Source of the DNA: Bdellovibrionales bacterium | GTDB lineage: Bacteria; Bdellovibrionota; Bdellovibrionia; Bdellovibrionales; UBA1609 | Assembly: GCA_013216195.1 (NCBI GenBank) | Contig: JABSOQ010000031.1 | Location: 1-32,333 of the forward strand | DNA length: 32,333 bases | Direction of reading: 5' to 3' | In this document: positions 3,401 to 10,457 of the stretch, piece after piece | How the letters are laid out: every line of letters starts with the position of its first letter | Numbering within the stretch: the first letter of the stretch is position 1 | Program-made: the position numbers and the translations under genes | The notes under the pieces: generated by a model | Database searches by the model: none | What the model was told of the DNA's origin: nothing | The model's input: only the letters and a program-made list of their open reading frames with translations

Positions 3401-4516
3401 ATGCAGATTCTAACCGATAAAGAAGCGATGGCTTGGGCCATCCTCGAGGCCAAAAAGGGCCGGGGTTGGGTTGCGCCTAACCCGGTTGTGGGCTGCTGTA
3501 TTCTAGACTCGAGCAATAGATTTTTATCCGTGGGTGCCCATTTAAAGTTTGGTGAGCAGCATGCTGAAACCAATGCTTTGAGCAAAATTCATGATAAGAG
3601 GCTTCTTAAGGGAGCTAAGGTATTTGTGACTCTTGAACCATGTGCTCATGTGGGCAATCAACCTTCTTGCGCCCACACTTTAAGTCAGTACGATTTGGGA
3701 AAAGTGGTGTATTTGGTAAAAGACCCCAACCCTAAAGCTCAAGGTGGTGCGGAGGTACTTAAGCAGGCCGGTATTGTCGTTGAGCACATGAGAGAGCTTG
3801 AAGATGAGGGCCGAGTATTGGCTGAGGTCTTTTTGTGTAATCAAATCGAGTCGCGTTGTTTGTTTCATCTCAAGGTGGCGTCGAGTCTTGATGGACTTGT
3901 TGCAAATGCCTCGGGTGAAAGCCAGTGGATCACTAACGAAGAGTCTCGGGCTCATGTGCAGGTCATGCGCGGTGAGCATGATGCTGTGCTGGTAGGTCGC
4001 GCTACCTTCGAGCAAGACTCTCCAAGGCTTAACTCTCGTGATGTTAGGTTCTCTGGTCGCTCGAATTGGGCGATCGTGCTAGACCCGAAAGCCAAGTTAA
4101 GAGACCAGTTGGTCGATTCGTCATTGACCTCAGTCAGGCCTGAGTCAAAGGTAGTTTGGGTCACATCATCGAGCTGTCAGGCAAAGGCACCCGGATCAAT
4201 AAACCATGTTCAGGTGCCAGAGATGCCTGGTGGTGAGCTGAGTCTTTTAGAGCTTGGCAAAAAACTGTTTCAACTTGGGATTTGCTCAGTAATGGTTGAG
4301 GGAGGGGCAAAAACCTTTGCTGCTTTTTTTAGCCAAAGCATGTGTGATCGCCTTTCTGTTTTTCAATCTGCCAGTTTGATTGGTTCGAAGAACTCGCCGT
4401 CTTGGTCGTCTGCTTTTGAAACGCGAGATCTTAAGGCCAGACCTACCTTGCGCCATCTTGAAACGACTATGTTTAGAGATGATATTTTTGTCTCTGGAAT
4501 CATCCGTAATTTCTGA
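3401..4516 (+). CDS. ribD: Bifunctional riboflavin biosynthesis deaminase/reductase
   Basis: RibD carries out the second and third steps from the GTP-derived pyrimidine towards riboflavin: zinc-dependent deamination by the N-terminal domain and NADPH-dependent ribosyl reduction by the C-terminal domain. The deaminase motifs are H54-A-E56 and the C81/C90 pair in PCAHVGNQPSC, so the zinc ligands and catalytic Glu are intact. The usual GRTPPC stretch reads GNQPSC here. The reductase domain (about 150-371) starts with a K-x-ASSLDG motif and contains VEGGAKTFAAF near the end. The ribosome binding site is weak (GTGAGAAG). It follows hmgA by 55 nt on the same strand and may be read from the hppD transcript, an unusual partner. 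No other rib gene is nearby. Confidence 0.93.
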   Translation: MQILTDKEAMAWAILEAKKGRGWVAPNPVVGCCILDSSNRFLSVGAHLKFGEQHAETNALSKIHDKRLLKGAKVFVTLEPCAHVGNQPSCAHTLSQYDLGKVVYLVKDPNPKAQGGAEVLKQAGIVVEHMRELEDEGRVLAEVFLCNQIESRCLFHLKVASSLDGLVANASGESQWITNEESRAHVQVMRGEHDAVLVGRATFEQDSPRLNSRDVRFSGRSNWAIVLDPKAKLRDQLVDSSLTSVRPESKVVWVTSSSCQAKAPGSINHVQVPEMPGGELSLLELGKKLFQLGICSVMVEGGAKTFAAFFSQSMCDRLSVFQSASLIGSKNSPSWSSAFETRDLKARPTLRHLETTMFRDDIFVSGIIRNF

Positions 4517-4598
4517 AATGTTGTTAAATCTTTTAGCTGGGTTCCGATAAAGACTATGTAAACCTGTGTGTTTTCTACTATCAACAGAGAGATGGTGT

Positions 4599-5504
4599 AT
4601 GGGAGCTAAAGTCTTAGCTGATGACAGAATCGCAGAACTTTGCGAGACAATTGATGAGAGATGGCGCGAGAAGATCATGATCTATGACAAGCAGCCTGAT
4701 CGCAGCAAGCCTTATTGCATTGGTGCAAACATTTGTCTAACTGAAGAGAACGATCCTCAAGATGTTTTAGATAGTGCAGTCAATCAGCAGATAGACAACA
4801 TGGTTCAAAAGGGTTCACCTGATTTACAAAATGAAGTGAAAACTTCAGCGATGATGGTTGTAGAGCCAATGAACTTCATCAACTTTCCGGTTTCGGCCAT
4901 TTTGGCCCCAAACAATGCCTGTAAAGATCAAGAGGCAGAACTCGCCGGCTTCAGATACGAATTCTCAAAAGCTACTGAGAAAGTGGATTGCCTGACGAAG
5001 TTTAGAGAGTTTTTGAGCCAGCACACGAAATCCGCTAACCATATGTCAGAGCTGGTGAGCGCTGCTGATGAGCTGTTTACAAATGCAGTGTTCAATGCTC
5101 CTTTTGTTAGTCTTGAAACAAATGAAAACCCTGGAAAAGACAGGGCTGATAATACGATTGAAATGGGCTCGAACTTTAAAGGAGTTCTATTCGCAGGTGT
5201 TCATAATGATCGCCTTGTGGTCGGCTGCAAGGACCCTTTTGGGACCCTGCAGTTGAAGCCTCTACTGACCAAGATTCAAAACTGCTACAGAGACGGTGTG
5301 GCAGAGTCAATGAATCTTGGACCCGGTGGAGCCGGTATTGGGAGTTTTCTCGTATTTAACACTGGTAGCAGTTACTACGTTGCCATTGTCAAAGGCGAGG
5401 CTACAGTGGTGAGTATTTCTGTTCCAATTAACATAAGTGCCAGAAAACGCAGTCAATTGCCAAAGAACCTACACTTCTTTGAGATTGAGCAGGGGGAAGC
5501 ATGA
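4599..5504 (+). CDS. RsbW-like GHKL ATPase, probable anti-sigma/partner-switch kinase
   Basis: The C-terminal half (about 140-301) shows the boxes of the GHKL ATPase fold used by RsbW/SpoIIAB serine kinases: an N box with E158-L-x-x-N162 (ADELFTNAVFN), a G1-like KDPFG (211-215) and a G2 loop GPGGAGIGSF (241-250). The first ~130 residues match nothing I recognise. RsbW-type proteins bind a sigma factor or another partner and phosphorylate a STAS antagonist; a STAS protein is encoded immediately downstream, with a 4-nt ATGA overlap (5501-5504), so a direct pair is likely. The GTG at 4566 extends the frame by 11 residues but lacks a binding site; AGAGAG before the ATG at 4599 supports that start. 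No sigma factor gene is present in the window, so the partner is unknown. Confidence 0.7.
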   Translation: MGAKVLADDRIAELCETIDERWREKIMIYDKQPDRSKPYCIGANICLTEENDPQDVLDSAVNQQIDNMVQKGSPDLQNEVKTSAMMVVEPMNFINFPVSAILAPNNACKDQEAELAGFRYEFSKATEKVDCLTKFREFLSQHTKSANHMSELVSAADELFTNAVFNAPFVSLETNENPGKDRADNTIEMGSNFKGVLFAGVHNDRLVVGCKDPFGTLQLKPLLTKIQNCYRDGVAESMNLGPGGAGIGSFLVFNTGSSYYVAIVKGEATVVSISVPINISARKRSQLPKNLHFFEIEQGEA

Positions 5505-5977
5505 GCGAGTTTAAAGTTTCAAAAAATCAAGAGGGCGAAGCGGTTACATTTGTCTTCGAGGGTAGTATCGATGAAGATGCTGTGTTCAGTGGACTTGAAG
5601 CTGCCGGCGCTCAAAGTGTGAGCCTTGATCTCGACAACGTGAAGTCAATCAACTCTTGCGGTATTCGCGAGTGGATCAAGTGGGTTAAGACAATTCCAGG
5701 AGAATCAAAAATCACTTACAAGAAGTGCCCTAAAGTCATCGTTGATCAGATCAATATGGTTGCGGGATTCTTGCCTGATAATGCAAAGGTAGAGAGCTTT
5801 TATGTTCCTTACTTTAGTGAAGATTCAGGTAATGAAAAAATGGTACTTTTCGAAGAGGGAAAAGATTTTAACGGCGGCGAAGTCACGGCTCCTGATGAGT
5901 TTACAGACGAGGAGACTGGTGATGAGATGGAAATGGATGTCATCGAGTCAAAATATTTTAAATTTTTGAACAAGTAA
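5501..5977 (+). CDS. STAS-domain protein with acidic C-terminal extension
   Basis: Residues 1-100 form a STAS (anti-anti-sigma) domain. A beta strand SLDLDNVKSI leads into N51-S52-C53-G54-I-R-E-W, which stands where classical antagonists have D-S-[ST]-G and the phosphorylated serine. One serine (S52) remains, while the second position is Cys. Residues about 105-158 are a short acidic extension with the pattern PYFSEDSGNEKMVLF, then FTDEETGDEM, then SKYFKFL. In proteins of this type I would expect two C-x2-C pairs of a zinc ribbon there; here those positions are S, S, T and T/G, so the ribbon appears to have lost its metal. It overlaps the upstream ATPase gene by 4 nt and lies 16 nt before the kinase gene. 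It is probably the antagonist switched by the ATPase. Confidence 0.7.
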   Translation: MSEFKVSKNQEGEAVTFVFEGSIDEDAVFSGLEAAGAQSVSLDLDNVKSINSCGIREWIKWVKTIPGESKITYKKCPKVIVDQINMVAGFLPDNAKVESFYVPYFSEDSGNEKMVLFEEGKDFNGGEVTAPDEFTDEETGDEMEMDVIESKYFKFLNK

Positions 5978-5993
5978 GACAACTAAGGATGAC

Positions 5994-7961
5994 ATGGACT
6001 ATAGCTTCTTTGACTCCTTGATCGATGGTGTCTTTGTAATCGATCAAGAGAAAAACATTGTCTATTGCAACGATGCTGCTGCGACTCTTGCTCACTCTTC
6101 GGTAAGAAGGTTGACCAAATCGCAATCCGTTAAAGTCTATGATGTCATCAACGTATCGCAGGCCGACTACTTTGTTACCAAAGAGGGCACAAACGGGCAA
6201 GATTCACCCGCTCCAGTTCAAGAGATGGATATGATGGTGTTGAAAGATGACTCTTCATTGAAGGTTCAACTTTCGATTCAGCCATTTCAAGACCCTAAGG
6301 GCAACCCGAGATGGACGGTCATGATCCACGATGTGACCTTAGAAGAAAGACTCCATACCAAATACCAAGGTGAACTTGAGCAAAAGGAAGACATGATTGC
6401 CGAGCTCAAAGATGCCAGAGAGCAGCTTGAGCAATATTCAAAAAATTTGGAGCAGATGGTTGAGGAGAGAACCAAGCAGGTCAAAAAGGCCAACAAGATG
6501 TTGCAAGCGATTATGAATAGCTTGGGGCAAGGTTTCTTGGTTTTCGACTCAACTGGTATGTGTGGCGATATCTACACTGAGGCTTGTAAGGAAGTCTTAG
6601 AGTCTACGCCTAAGGATCAAAATATTGCAGATGTCTTAGGTCTCAAAGAGGGTGAGAAAGAGCAGTTTCAGCAATGGCAGACAGCTACCTTCTCACAGGC
6701 TTTGCCCTTCGATTCAATGAAAGAGCTTGCACCAAAAGAGTACCATCACTCAGAAGCTGATCGATTTATCACTTTAGATTACTTTCCAATTTTTACTGAA
6801 GATGATCAGCTAGAAAACGTAGTTTTGGTTGCGACAGACAAGACTGTTGAACACCAGGCTGCGATTGCACTCGAGAAAGAGCAAGAGTTTGTGAAAATGG
6901 TTACGAAACTGATTCGCAATAAGAATCAATTCTCAGAGTTTCTTGGTGCGACCAAAGAGAACATCTTTGCCATTCAGGGCATTCTTCAAAAAAGTAGTGG
7001 TGACCTTGACCCAGACTTTTTGTTTCGCGCCCTTCATACCCTTGAGGGAGAAGCTGCTGCATTTCATGCTTGGAAGATTAGGCAGCGCTCGCGAGAGTTT
7101 CAAACCTTGCTCGAGCCTATTCGTCGCGATGAACGCCCTCCGTCTTCAGAAGAGCTCAGCGAGATGCTCGAATCTTGCGGGACTTTAAGGTCTTCGTATT
7201 ACGAGTTTATAAAAGACAACCAGGACATCTTTGATCTGGTTTCACTGGGTGACGAGAGAAAGATTGAGCTTTCGGCCAAAGACTTGTTGTCGTTTGCGAA
7301 TTCACTCACAGCAGCTGGCGTTCACCATGAGATTGTCGAAGATTTTAAAGCCGAGTTTATCTTTCAAGACGTTCCGTCTCTTTTGCATCACTACAATGAT
7401 GCCGTTCAGCAGGTCGCTGAGCGCCAAGAGAAGAAGGTCAAGCCGATCATGTTTGAAAACTCAGGTGTAAGAGTTCTACCTGAGCCTTATCAGAAGGTAG
7501 TTGCCAGCCTAGTGCATGTCTTCAGAAACTCAGTTGATCACGGAATCGAAAGCCCCAGTGAGAGAGCCGCCGCAGGTAAAGATGAGTTTGGGCACATCAC
7601 GGTGTCTTCAAGTTTTGTTGAACAAGGCGGTCAGAGGCGGGTGCATGTTGTGATTCGCGATGATGGCAAAGGCATCGACATTGACAAGCTCAGAGATAAG
7701 ATAACCGGCGACAAAGGTCCTGAATTTGCGGCTGGTTTAACAGATAATCAAATAATGCTCTCGATCTTCGAGGCAGGCTTTTCTAGTCGAGATCAGGTAG
7801 GCGAGTTTTCAGGCCGAGGTGTAGGTATGGACGCCGTTAAAGCTGCTGTTGAAGATCTTGGCGGTGTGGTTCGGGTTGACTCAACTTTGGGCAAAGAAAC
7901 AATTATTACGATTGATCTTCCAGACTTATCACGAGAAACTGCTAGTATCGTAGCTGCGTAA
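5994..7961 (+). CDS. PAS/HPt/CheA-like sensor histidine kinase
   Basis: This cytoplasmic protein has no membrane segment. The order is PAS domain (about 1-118), coiled coil (about 120-170, rich in E/K/Q), second PAS-like domain (about 172-290), HPt-like helical domain with candidate phosphorylation site H348 (ALHTLEGEAAAF), linker/dimerisation region, and a CheA-type ATPase domain. The ATPase boxes are clear: N512 (HVFRNSVDHGIE), DDGKG 556-560 and GRGVGMD 607-613. The HPt motif is normally H-x-L-K-G, and the lysine is Glu here. There is no CheW-like domain at the end, so it probably does not dock to chemoreceptors. AAGGA precedes the ATG. A CheY-like receiver follows after 20 nt and is the likely phosphate acceptor. 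Confidence 0.85.
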   Translation: MDYSFFDSLIDGVFVIDQEKNIVYCNDAAATLAHSSVRRLTKSQSVKVYDVINVSQADYFVTKEGTNGQDSPAPVQEMDMMVLKDDSSLKVQLSIQPFQDPKGNPRWTVMIHDVTLEERLHTKYQGELEQKEDMIAELKDAREQLEQYSKNLEQMVEERTKQVKKANKMLQAIMNSLGQGFLVFDSTGMCGDIYTEACKEVLESTPKDQNIADVLGLKEGEKEQFQQWQTATFSQALPFDSMKELAPKEYHHSEADRFITLDYFPIFTEDDQLENVVLVATDKTVEHQAAIALEKEQEFVKMVTKLIRNKNQFSEFLGATKENIFAIQGILQKSSGDLDPDFLFRALHTLEGEAAAFHAWKIRQRSREFQTLLEPIRRDERPPSSEELSEMLESCGTLRSSYYEFIKDNQDIFDLVSLGDERKIELSAKDLLSFANSLTAAGVHHEIVEDFKAEFIFQDVPSLLHHYNDAVQQVAERQEKKVKPIMFENSGVRVLPEPYQKVVASLVHVFRNSVDHGIESPSERAAAGKDEFGHITVSSSFVEQGGQRRVHVVIRDDGKGIDIDKLRDKITGDKGPEFAAGLTDNQIMLSIFEAGFSSRDQVGEFSGRGVGMDAVKAAVEDLGGVVRVDSTLGKETIITIDLPDLSRETASIVAA

Positions 7962-7981
7962 TTCTGCTAGTAGGGGATTTC

Positions 7982-8386
7982 ATGTTTGCAAAAGAAACTC
8001 ATATTCTCGTCGTTGATGATTCATTGAACATTCGTCGCCTCGTCGTAGATAACCTAAACCGGTTGGGTTTTAAAAAAATCACTACAGCTGAAGATGCGAA
8101 TGAGGCTATGAAAAAGCTAAATGCCAGCTATGAAACAGAGACGCCGATCACTTTGGTTCTGTCAGACTTAAACATGCCAGGCCCTAGTGGTCTAGATTTT
8201 CTTAAGCAGGTGCGTTCTATAGCGAATTTCAAAGGTCTTCCTTTTCTCTTGGTCACCACTGAAAGCGAAAAAGGGGCTGTTATTGAGGCAGCGATGTCTG
8301 GCGTGAGTGCTTACATTGTGAAGCCATTCAACCTCGAAACCCTGACCAAAAGGCTGGGTGAAGCTTACAAAAAGCACTTTGGCTAA
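7982..8386 (+). CDS. CheY-like single-domain response regulator
   Basis: At 134 residues this is a lone receiver domain without an output domain. The phosphorylation pocket is complete: D12 and D13 (VVDDS), phospho-acceptor D62 (LSDLNMPG), T92/T93 (LVTTES) and K114 (IVKPF). It follows the PAS/HPt/CheA-like kinase by 20 nt, and GGGGA precedes its ATG. It is therefore likely to take phosphate from that kinase and pass the signal on by binding, either to the STAS/ATPase pair upstream, to the receiver-J-domain protein downstream or to a motility target elsewhere. The Y of a CheY-type motor binder is not decisive here, so a chemotaxis role is not supported by context. Confidence 0.9.
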   Translation: MFAKETHILVVDDSLNIRRLVVDNLNRLGFKKITTAEDANEAMKKLNASYETETPITLVLSDLNMPGPSGLDFLKQVRSIANFKGLPFLLVTTESEKGAVIEAAMSGVSAYIVKPFNLETLTKRLGEAYKKHFG

Positions 8387-8405
8387 GCTAAGAAAGCCCC
8401 ATGGG

Positions 8406-8429
8406 CTCAAGATGCCTTGCTGGCTTGAG
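8406..8429. repeat. Short imperfect hairpin between the two receiver genes
   Basis: Arms CTCAAG (8406-8411) and CTTGAG (8424-8429) pair around an inner GCC/GGC stem. No run of T follows on either strand, so a Rho-independent terminator is not supported. It lies in the 139-nt gap separating the CheY-like gene from the receiver-J-domain gene and may slow or attenuate transcription. Confidence 0.2.
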
Positions 8430-8525
8430 GTCCAGGTTTCGCTTAGAATCAATATGCAGCCTTTTGAGAGAAAAACTCTACCAATATGTATCAACTGTTG
8501 CGGGCTCTAACCCGATAAGATCTTT

Positions 8526-10457
8526 GTGAAAAAGAGTGAAATCCAAATCTTAGTTGTAGACGATGATATTACGGTTCTTAAGGTGCTAGAAGGCGCTATT
8601 AAGAAGTTTGGCTTTAAACCATTGGTGGCCAAAAATATCGATCTTGCACTCCAGCAGGTGAGAATGGTGCAAGTACATGCTGCAATTATTGATTGTATGT
8701 TACCTGCTAAAAACGGAGTCGATCTTGCGATCGAGTTTCGAGACACTCGTTTTGGTAAACAGCCAATCATTCTTAGTAGTGGTATTTTTAAAGATAAAAA
8801 CTTTATTGATGAAGCTAAGACAAATGCGCAGGCTGTAGACTTTCTAGTTAAGCCTATAGACCTCGAAAAGTTAGAGGAGCTACTAAACGAGCATTTGGCT
8901 AACCTTATTTCAGAAGAAACGGTACCCCTTCACAAGTTGATTTCAAAGGGTTATGAGTCTGCGCGTGAGCGAAGAAAGGCCATTGAGAGTCTAGAAGAAG
9001 TGAGTGGTTATGATTTGCCATTTATCTTGAGTGTTCTTATGGATGCAAAGGTTGGTGGCCACCTCAATATCATCAATCAAGCCGGTGAGATTCATGGTAT
9101 CTCGCTTTGCAAAGGGTTGGTTACTAACGTTGATAGCCCAGATTCGGCTGCTACGCTAGCTATGTCACTGATGCAGCAAGGTGTGATTACTCAAGAAGAT
9201 ATAAAAGAGCTAGGAGAGAAGGTGCTAAAAGGCGATTTGCTCAAGACTTTGTTGAATGAAGCTCTTATTAGCCCGCACTCGGTAAATGACATCAGAAAGC
9301 AACAGGCAATTGCGGAAATCAAAAATTTGATTTCACCTGAGCGGCTTCAATTTAACTTCGCTCCTGAGAGACTCAAAGAAGATATTCCAGGTGTCAGTCT
9401 TGATGAGTTGATGCCACTTTTTAATAAGGTCACTGAAGACATTCTAGATGTCAATTACATCAAAGACTTTTACAAAGATTGGGGAGAGTTCCCTATATTG
9501 AAAGGTCCTCAGTACACTTCTGAACTATCTTTGCAGGCTTTTTCGATATTAAATGCGACACCTAACATTCACCAGTCTGCCGAACAGAACTTTACGATCA
9601 ACGAGCTTATTGAGACGAGAGCATTCGACCCGGCTCAAATCTACAAAGCGATTCACTTGTTGACTCTTAAGAGAGTGATAATTTTTGATACCGAGAAAAA
9701 GGGCCTTGCTGGTAAAAGTCTCGCTGAAAAAGTTGTGCACGTTTACGAAAAAGTAAAACACATGAAGCCAGAGGAAGTATTCATATACTTTGGGGCAACC
9801 GAAGCGGTGAGTGTTGCCGAGGTTCAGAAGATTTACAAAGAGTTCGCAAAAACCAATCATCCAGATAAAATGGTGGGCGTATCTGCAGAAGTTAAAGAGA
9901 CAGCGACACGCCTATTCTCTAAGGTGAGTGAAGCTCACGATATTTTGGGTAATCAAGAGGCTCGAGAAAAGCATTATAACGAAATTAAGCAAAAAGCAGC
10001 TCGTGTGCAGATAGAGGCTGAAGAACTAACTCAAAAAGCCAAGATGTTCTTAAAGAAGAATTCCTTTGGCCGAGCTTTTGAGCTGCTAACGAAGGCCTAT
10101 GATCTCTATCAGGGCACAGAAGTTGAGTTGCACTTCTTGTGGGCGAGGTTGAAAATAGCCGAACAGCACACGCCCGAGAATCTTGAGCAAACAGACAAGA
10201 TCTTGAAGGGCTATGATTCAGAAGAAAAGCGTACGGCTCTTTATCAGTTCGTATTGGGCTTATATAAGAGGGATAGACAAGTTAGGATGGGTGCCATGGC
10301 GTGTTTTGTTTCAGCTATGACTTACGACCCAGATTTTCTAGACGCGAGACGTGAGACTCTGTTGCTTCAGAATCATAAAGCTCCTATCTCTGGTAAAGAT
10401 CTCCTGAGTGCTGACCTTGGTGAAATCATGGGAAGCCTCTTCAAAAAGAGAAAGTAA
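8526..10457 (+). CDS. Response regulator receiver - DUF4388 - J domain - TPR-like protein
   Basis: The 643 residues combine parts rarely seen together. Residues 1-125 are a receiver with D12-D14, phospho-acceptor D56 (IIDCMLP), S84/S85 and K109 (FLVKP). About 155-265 resembles DUF4388 (PatA N-terminal type): GYDLPFILSVL, then GGHLNI and ITQEDI. About 415-485 is a J domain whose HPD tripeptide is intact (H445-P446-D447), flanked by VQKIYKEFAK and FSKVSEAHDIL helices. About 490-640 is helical and TPR-like. A J domain stimulates the ATPase of Hsp70, so phosphorylation might control recruitment of DnaK to a target; this is inference. The start is GTG at 8526 with only a weak AAGA upstream. It lies 139 nt after the kinase/receiver operon, and its 3' end faces an RsmE-like gene 33 nt away. 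Confidence 0.85.
   Translation: MKKSEIQILVVDDDITVLKVLEGAIKKFGFKPLVAKNIDLALQQVRMVQVHAAIIDCMLPAKNGVDLAIEFRDTRFGKQPIILSSGIFKDKNFIDEAKTNAQAVDFLVKPIDLEKLEELLNEHLANLISEETVPLHKLISKGYESARERRKAIESLEEVSGYDLPFILSVLMDAKVGGHLNIINQAGEIHGISLCKGLVTNVDSPDSAATLAMSLMQQGVITQEDIKELGEKVLKGDLLKTLLNEALISPHSVNDIRKQQAIAEIKNLISPERLQFNFAPERLKEDIPGVSLDELMPLFNKVTEDILDVNYIKDFYKDWGEFPILKGPQYTSELSLQAFSILNATPNIHQSAEQNFTINELIETRAFDPAQIYKAIHLLTLKRVIIFDTEKKGLAGKSLAEKVVHVYEKVKHMKPEEVFIYFGATEAVSVAEVQKIYKEFAKTNHPDKMVGVSAEVKETATRLFSKVSEAHDILGNQEAREKHYNEIKQKAARVQIEAEELTQKAKMFLKKNSFGRAFELLTKAYDLYQGTEVELHFLWARLKIAEQHTPENLEQTDKILKGYDSEEKRTALYQFVLGLYKRDRQVRMGAMACFVSAMTYDPDFLDARRETLLLQNHKAPISGKDLLSADLGEIMGSLFKKRK

What the first reader, a model, noticed from the sequence alone, without database searches (positions are those of the whole stretch)
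4599..10457. Partner-switch and phosphorelay components in one signalling block
An RsbW-like GHKL ATPase, a STAS protein, a soluble PAS/HPt/CheA-like kinase, a CheY-like receiver and a receiver-DUF4388-J-domain protein are encoded consecutively; the first four lie within 20 nt of each other. This could be a single pathway in which the kinase output sets the STAS/ATPase switch. There is no sigma factor, PP2C phosphatase or receptor in the block, so the logic differs from classical Rsb systems. The link between modules is inference from adjacency.
Basis: partly seen in the sequence, partly recalled or inferred. Interest (0 to 1): 0.7.

Follow-up and report, generated by a model that had tools for sequence, protein, structure and literature searches.

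The report
Envelope-sensing partner-switch and phosphorelay operon
In Bdellovibrio-type bacteria, five neighbouring genes encode a serine-phosphorylation switch and a histidine-aspartate relay that stay clustered across the group, usually beside a membrane phosphatase receptor that this genome carries elsewhere; this suggests an undescribed envelope-signalling pathway that does not use a nearby sigma factor.

Summary
The five genes are real and at the stated coordinates. A (4599-5504) folds as a SpoIIAB/RsbW serine kinase. B (5501-5977) folds as a SpoIIAA/RsbV-type STAS protein with an invariant phospho-site serine. C is a soluble PAS-HPt-HATPase kinase, D a CheY-like receiver, E a receiver-(DUF4388)-J protein. 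The A-B-C-D-E order recurs in 17 loci of the same family. Stronger evidence comes from other families (Bdellovibrio and others): the same genes cluster there in different orders, orientations and surroundings. Two kinds of fusion also occur: A-B in three loci and phosphatase-A in one.

In relatives a membrane HAMP-SpoIIE PP2C receptor sits directly upstream of A (or of B), usually beside a divergent FecR-domain envelope protein. The window lineage lost it from the operon but keeps PP2C-receptor homologues elsewhere in the genome.

Most likely this is an envelope-signal partner switch joined to a phosphorelay, with no sigma factor nearby. The switch parts are well supported. The coupling between switch and relay is inferred, and the output, perhaps surface motility through E, is speculative. 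I rate it a new variant of a known kind.

The parts
4599..5504 (+). A: SpoIIAB/RsbW-type GHKL serine kinase (residues ~114-280) with a variable N-terminal ~110 aa alpha/beta region of unproven identity
   Evidence: AF2 model pLDDT 90.6; VIA-align top matches SpoIIAB Z 12.6-12.0, RsbW 11.0, SiaB 11.0, histidine kinases about 6; E158, N162, D212, G215, G244, G246, G248 invariant in 37 relatives
5501..5977 (+). B: STAS (anti-sigma-antagonist-type) switch protein, phospho-acceptor candidate Ser52, with a C-terminal extension
   Evidence: AF2 model pLDDT 92.4; Foldseek top matches SpoIIAA, Haliangium antagonist, RsbV; profile search of the PDB finds STAS proteins; N51, S52, G54 invariant in 42 relatives
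5994..7961 (+). C: soluble PAS-HPt-HATPase kinase (HPt His348; N-box His508/Asn512), no CheW-like domain, no predicted membrane segment
   Evidence: Pfam PAS, Hpt, HATPase_c; H348, G352, N512, D556, G558, G609 conserved in 55 relatives; no hydrophobic segment
7982..8386 (+). D: CheY-like single-domain receiver, phospho-acceptor Asp62
   Evidence: Response_reg 9.4e-21; D12/D13, D62, T92, K114 conserved in 48 relatives
8526..10457 (+). E: receiver (Asp56) - DUF4388/PATAN-like - J domain (HPD) - C-terminal helical region
   Evidence: Response_reg 7.5e-14, DnaJ 2.7e-7 over cut-off, DUF4388 15.0 bits, below the 25 cut-off; DUF4388 reaches the cut-off in relatives L283 and L239; D13, D56, S85, K109 conserved

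Best explanation
The block is the cytoplasmic part of one envelope-signalling pathway made of a partner switch plus a histidine-aspartate relay. Steps: (1) a membrane receptor (two transmembrane segments, HAMP, SpoIIE-type PP2C), usually encoded next to A or B together with a FecR-domain envelope protein, senses an envelope signal and removes phosphate from Ser52 of B. (2) A, a SpoIIAB/RsbW-type kinase, re-phosphorylates B; the phosphorylation state of B decides whether B binds A or another partner. (3) C autophosphorylates its HPt His348 and passes phosphate to D (Asp62) and probably E (Asp56). (4) The two halves are coupled by direct protein contact, since neither the PP2C nor A carries a recognisable receiver domain. 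(5) The output is not a neighbouring sigma factor; E is the best candidate effector. In the window lineage the PP2C receptor gene has left the operon and is supplied in trans. Shown by sequence or structure: parts, catalytic residues, clustering, fusions, absence of the PP2C from this operon. Inferred: steps 1-2 by family knowledge, step 3 by domain content and adjacency, steps 4-5 by clustering and elimination.
For: A and B have the SpoIIAB and SpoIIAA folds with catalytic residues and phospho-serine kept. A and B are fused in L248, L266 and L267; PP2C and A are fused in L263. PP2C directly precedes A or B in many relatives. Around 32 B genes with at least 6.5 kb on each side, within 7 kb: PP2C 23, A 21, C 27, D 22, E 21, FecR protein 20. 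The cluster persists in Bdellovibrio-type genomes in another order and another neighbourhood. All phosphotransfer residues of C, D and E are conserved. No sigma-factor motif within the loci except one ~5 kb away at a paralogous locus (crude motif scan). Two full-length PP2C receptor homologues, with no or few substitutions at conserved residues, lie elsewhere in the window genome.
Against: A is missing from the locus in Bdellovibrio-type genomes and in two same-family genomes (G006, G014), so the kinase is replaceable. E next to B in the two families falls in separate clades, so its membership may have arisen twice. Within the same family the flanking metabolic genes are conserved too, so order there is partly regional synteny. 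No interaction or phosphotransfer data exist.
Confidence: 0.55

Rival explanations
1. Two separate signalling modules (PP2C-A-B partner switch; C-D/E relay) are co-located because they serve the same physiological response, with no direct molecular coupling.
For: In Bdellovibrio-type genomes the two sets are on opposite strands: PP2C-B-E one way, FecR-C the other way. No receiver domain links PP2C or A to the relay.
Against: In the window's family B, C and D are within 20 nt. In L263 C overlaps the PP2C-A fusion gene by 4 nt and B follows about 40 nt downstream. E, a receiver protein, follows B closely on the same strand in Bdellovibrio-type loci, mixing the modules.
Confidence: 0.28
2. A conventional Rsb-type switch: A is an anti-sigma factor for a sigma factor encoded elsewhere, and B is its antagonist.
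For: A aligns best with SpoIIAB and RsbW anti-sigma kinases.
Against: No sigma factor clusters with the set in the loci examined, by a crude motif scan. A is lost while B and the PP2C stay in several genomes. SiaB, a non-sigma kinase, scores only slightly lower.
Confidence: 0.12
3. In the window lineage the switch really runs without a PP2C, the relay having taken over control of B.
For: No PP2C gene in the operon; A-E order kept.
Against: Full-length PP2C receptor homologues exist at C255 and C46 of the same genome. Same-family genomes without an operon PP2C tend to have a solo PP2C (13 of 16 against 2 of 10, Fisher p 0.004, not corrected for phylogeny).
Confidence: 0.05

Closest known systems
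SpoIIAB-SpoIIAA-SpoIIE and RsbW-RsbV-RsbU (Bacillus)
   Same: Kinase, STAS and PP2C domains; conserved serine; adjacency of the three genes in relatives.
   Different: No sigma factor gene nearby; receptor PP2C is a HAMP membrane protein; a HPt kinase and two receivers in the same cluster.
SiaABCD (Pseudomonas aeruginosa)
   Same: Phosphatase SiaA, SpoIIAB-like kinase SiaB, phospho-switched partner, non-sigma output (PMC8457831; SiaB fold Z 11.0). One relative (L281) carries a PAS-GGDEF-ATPase fusion.
   Different: SiaC is DUF1987, B is STAS; no diguanylate cyclase in the window block; Sia has no relay genes of this kind (own knowledge).
HptB-PA3346 (HsbR)-PA3347 (HsbA), SypE-SypA, RsfS-RsfR-RsfB
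   Same: Histidine-aspartate signalling controls phosphorylation of a STAS protein (PMC8256260; PMC10950880).
   Different: There the receiver is fused to the PP2C (RsfR) or to a dual kinase/phosphatase (PA3346; SypE, partly own knowledge). Here receivers are separate proteins and the PP2C is a HAMP membrane receptor.
PATAN-domain CheY-like regulators (PixE, PixG, LsiR, cyanobacteria)
   Same: Receiver plus PATAN/DUF4388-like region; thought to act on type IV pili (PMC7690835).
   Different: E has an added J domain and C-terminal helical region; DUF4388 match in the window copy is below the cut-off; no evidence of pilus targeting.

Membership tests
Rsb/SpoIIA partner-switching systems | STAS protein with phosphorylatable Ser/Thr at the conserved site | tested here: met
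   STAS fold; S52 invariant in 42 relatives
Rsb/SpoIIA partner-switching systems | SpoIIAB/RsbW-type GHKL serine kinase | tested here: met
   Z 12.6 to SpoIIAB; N-box and G-box residues invariant
Rsb/SpoIIA partner-switching systems | PP2C (SpoIIE/RsbU) phosphatase partner | tested here: met
   Met in relatives, directly upstream of A or B; in the window genome homologues only elsewhere
Rsb/SpoIIA partner-switching systems | Sigma factor as the switch target | tested here: inconclusive
   None in the clusters by motif scan; a distant target cannot be excluded
Rsb/SpoIIA partner-switching systems | Phosphorylation-dependent exchange of binding partners | not testable with these tools
   Needs biochemistry
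Receiver-fused phosphatase/kinase switches (HsbR, RsfR, SypE) | Receiver domain fused to the PP2C or to the serine kinase | tested here: not met
   PP2C receptors are HAMP-SpoIIE only; no receiver match in 37 A proteins; the N-terminal region of A remains unassigned
SiaABCD | DUF1987 SiaC partner and GGDEF output in the operon | tested here: not met
   B is STAS; no GGDEF in the block; GGDEF-ATPase fusion only in L281
CheA chemosensory kinase | HPt and HATPase domains | tested here: met
   Pfam Hpt and HATPase_c
CheA chemosensory kinase | CheW-like P5 domain and chemoreceptor partners | tested here: not met
   C ends just after the HATPase domain, no CheW match; no receptor of that type in the block
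PATAN/DUF4388 response regulators | Receiver plus DUF4388 | tested here: inconclusive
   15.0 bits against cut-off 25 in the window; 30.2 in paralogue L283 and 25.0 in L239

The most novel reading that the evidence does not exclude
A partner switch whose STAS protein acts on a histidine kinase/receiver relay instead of a sigma factor, linking a PP2C envelope receptor to a receiver-PATAN-J effector, conserved through the predatory Bdellovibrionota and able to work after losing its dedicated serine kinase.
Probability: 0.3. Interest if true: 0.75.

Novelty: new variant of a known kind. Interest (0 to 1): 0.5.

Why it matters
It would add a conserved envelope-signalling pathway to predatory bacteria and join two signalling chemistries (serine and histidine-aspartate) through separate proteins, not a fused receiver-phosphatase. 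The B. bacteriovorus kdesi locus (L239) makes it testable in a named Bdellovibrio strain. The repeated loss of kinase A while phosphatase and STAS protein stay asks who phosphorylates B; the cyclic-nucleotide-binding ATPase kept in such genomes is a concrete candidate.

Tried and rejected
Pfam and NCBIfam on A and B alone gave nothing, so they were identified by relatives and predicted structure. A profile of A against PDB sequences found nothing. The idea that A's N-terminal region is half a receiver domain: the best profile match among the session's families was receiver D in a sensible register, but E 0.019 and probability 2.5% are too weak; the fold comparison did not cover that region. 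That the C255 phosphatase is the operon copy moved: the tree places it in a separate paralogue clade; C46 groups with the operon clade but on a long branch. Orthology of E between the two families could not be resolved. Promoter and terminator scans gave about the chance number. Literature searches found no description of this set in Bdellovibrio (open-access library only).

Full report
Observation. The window is a 32 kb contig of a 4.1 Mb assembly; its nearest named relatives are Bdellovibrionales metagenome-assembled genomes. The five genes are present, co-directional and tightly spaced as described: A/B overlap by 4 nt, then gaps of 16, 20 and 139 nt. Pfam supports C (PAS, Hpt, HATPase_c), D (receiver) and E (receiver, DnaJ; DUF4388 only at 15 bits against a cut-off of 25). 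A and B had no library match of their own.

Identity of A and B. B was modelled with high confidence, and the best solved structures are SpoIIAA, a Haliangium antagonist and RsbV. A profile of B finds anti-sigma antagonists in the PDB, though weakly. Asn51-Ser52-x-Gly54 is invariant in 42 relatives, so the site that is phosphorylated in SpoIIAA/RsbV is kept. A was modelled with high confidence. Residues 114-280 match SpoIIAB at Z 12.6 and RsbW and SiaB at 11.0, well above histidine kinases at about 6. Glu158, Asn162, Asp212, Gly215, Gly244, Gly246 and Gly248 are invariant in 37 relatives. The N-terminal 110 residues are variable and unassigned.

Gene neighbourhood. In the same family the order A-B-C-D-E is kept in 17 loci, counting the window, where contigs are long enough. 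However, homogentisate dioxygenase and ribD upstream, and the aromatic amino acid hydroxylase region downstream, are kept too, so this alone is partly regional synteny. The stronger evidence is outside the family. In Bdellovibrio-type genomes, including B. bacteriovorus kdesi (L239), the order is PP2C-B-E on one strand with FecR protein-C on the other and usually D next to C, without those metabolic genes. In L263 the order is C, PP2C-A fusion, B, D. Across 32 B loci with at least 6.5 kb on both sides, PP2C is within 7 kb in 23, A in 21, C in 27, D in 22, E in 21, FecR protein in 20. These loci are related and were found through B, so the counts are descriptive, not independent trials.

The missing phosphatase. 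Directly upstream of A, or of B where A is absent, many relatives have a ~610-residue protein with two transmembrane segments, HAMP and SpoIIE PP2C, usually divergent from a FecR-domain envelope protein. The window genome has SpoIIE domains at C255, C46, C232 and C254. C255 and C46 are full-length HAMP-SpoIIE proteins; C255 keeps every highly conserved acidic, Gly, Asn and His position, C46 keeps all but three. In the tree C255 belongs to a separate solo-PP2C clade, while C46 joins the clade of operon copies on a long branch. Same-family genomes without an operon PP2C have a solo one in 13 of 16 cases, against 2 of 10 of those with an operon copy (my tally; Fisher p 0.004, uncorrected for phylogeny and with a 300-bit threshold chosen after seeing the data).

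Fusions. A-B fusions occur in L248, L266 and L267, a PP2C-A fusion in L263, and a PAS-GGDEF-ATPase fusion in L281 beside PP2C and B. These tie kinase, STAS and phosphatase together and hint that in one lineage the output is cyclic-di-GMP.

The relay. C keeps HPt His348 and all ATP-site motifs in 55 relatives; D keeps Asp62, Thr92 and Lys114; E keeps Asp56, Ser85 and Lys109. C has no CheW-like domain and no membrane segment, so it is not a chemoreceptor-array kinase. E's J-domain HPD motif is present in the window copy but absent from Bdellovibrio-type E proteins, so chaperone recruitment is not a constant feature.

A puzzle. Bdellovibrio-type genomes and two same-family genomes (G006, G014) keep B but have no A in the locus. 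Each A-lacking genome searched has one further A-like ATPase (two in G092), in most a ~480-610-residue frame; in the two examined with Pfam it is fused to a cyclic-nucleotide-binding domain. Whether it phosphorylates B is untested.

Mechanism and doubt. The partner-switch core is well supported. That the relay and switch form one pathway is supported by persistent clustering through rearrangement, but the direction and point of contact are unknown. In known systems that join the two chemistries, the receiver is fused to the phosphatase or kinase (RsfR; PA3346); here it is not. A link to type IV pili or gliding through E rests only on analogy with PATAN regulators.

Novelty. The component kinds are known. 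I found no description of this combination in the open-access library. I rate it a new variant of a known kind.

Noticed in passing
L300:4149-5579 (-), L302:5238-7046 (+): Stand-alone proteins with an N-terminal cyclic-nucleotide-binding domain and a C-terminal A-like ATPase; an A-like ATPase is present in every genome searched that lacks A at the locus.
   Followed up: partly
L281:8471-10591 (+): PAS-GGDEF-ATPase fusion next to PP2C and STAS genes in a Bacteriovoracaceae genome, suggesting a cyclic-di-GMP output in that lineage.
   Followed up: partly
L141:8610-10778 (+), L208:1853-5242 (-): Large FecR-domain envelope proteins, one N-terminal membrane segment, usually divergent from the PP2C receptor gene, including solo PP2C loci.
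   Followed up: partly
L147 (G000:C232): Two tandem STAS paralogues near a very large (about 1700-residue) SpoIIE-domain frame in the window genome.
   Followed up: no
L145:8694-9254 (+) against window 5501-5977: A STAS paralogue outside the operon carries a CxxC...CxxC pair in the C-terminal extension like a zinc ribbon; the operon STAS proteins of this family lack the cysteines.
   Followed up: no
window 3401-5504: A starts 82 nt after ribD and the hppd-hgd-ribD-A order is kept in many genomes of the family, so the signalling genes may be read through from a tyrosine-degradation/riboflavin operon.
   Followed up: no
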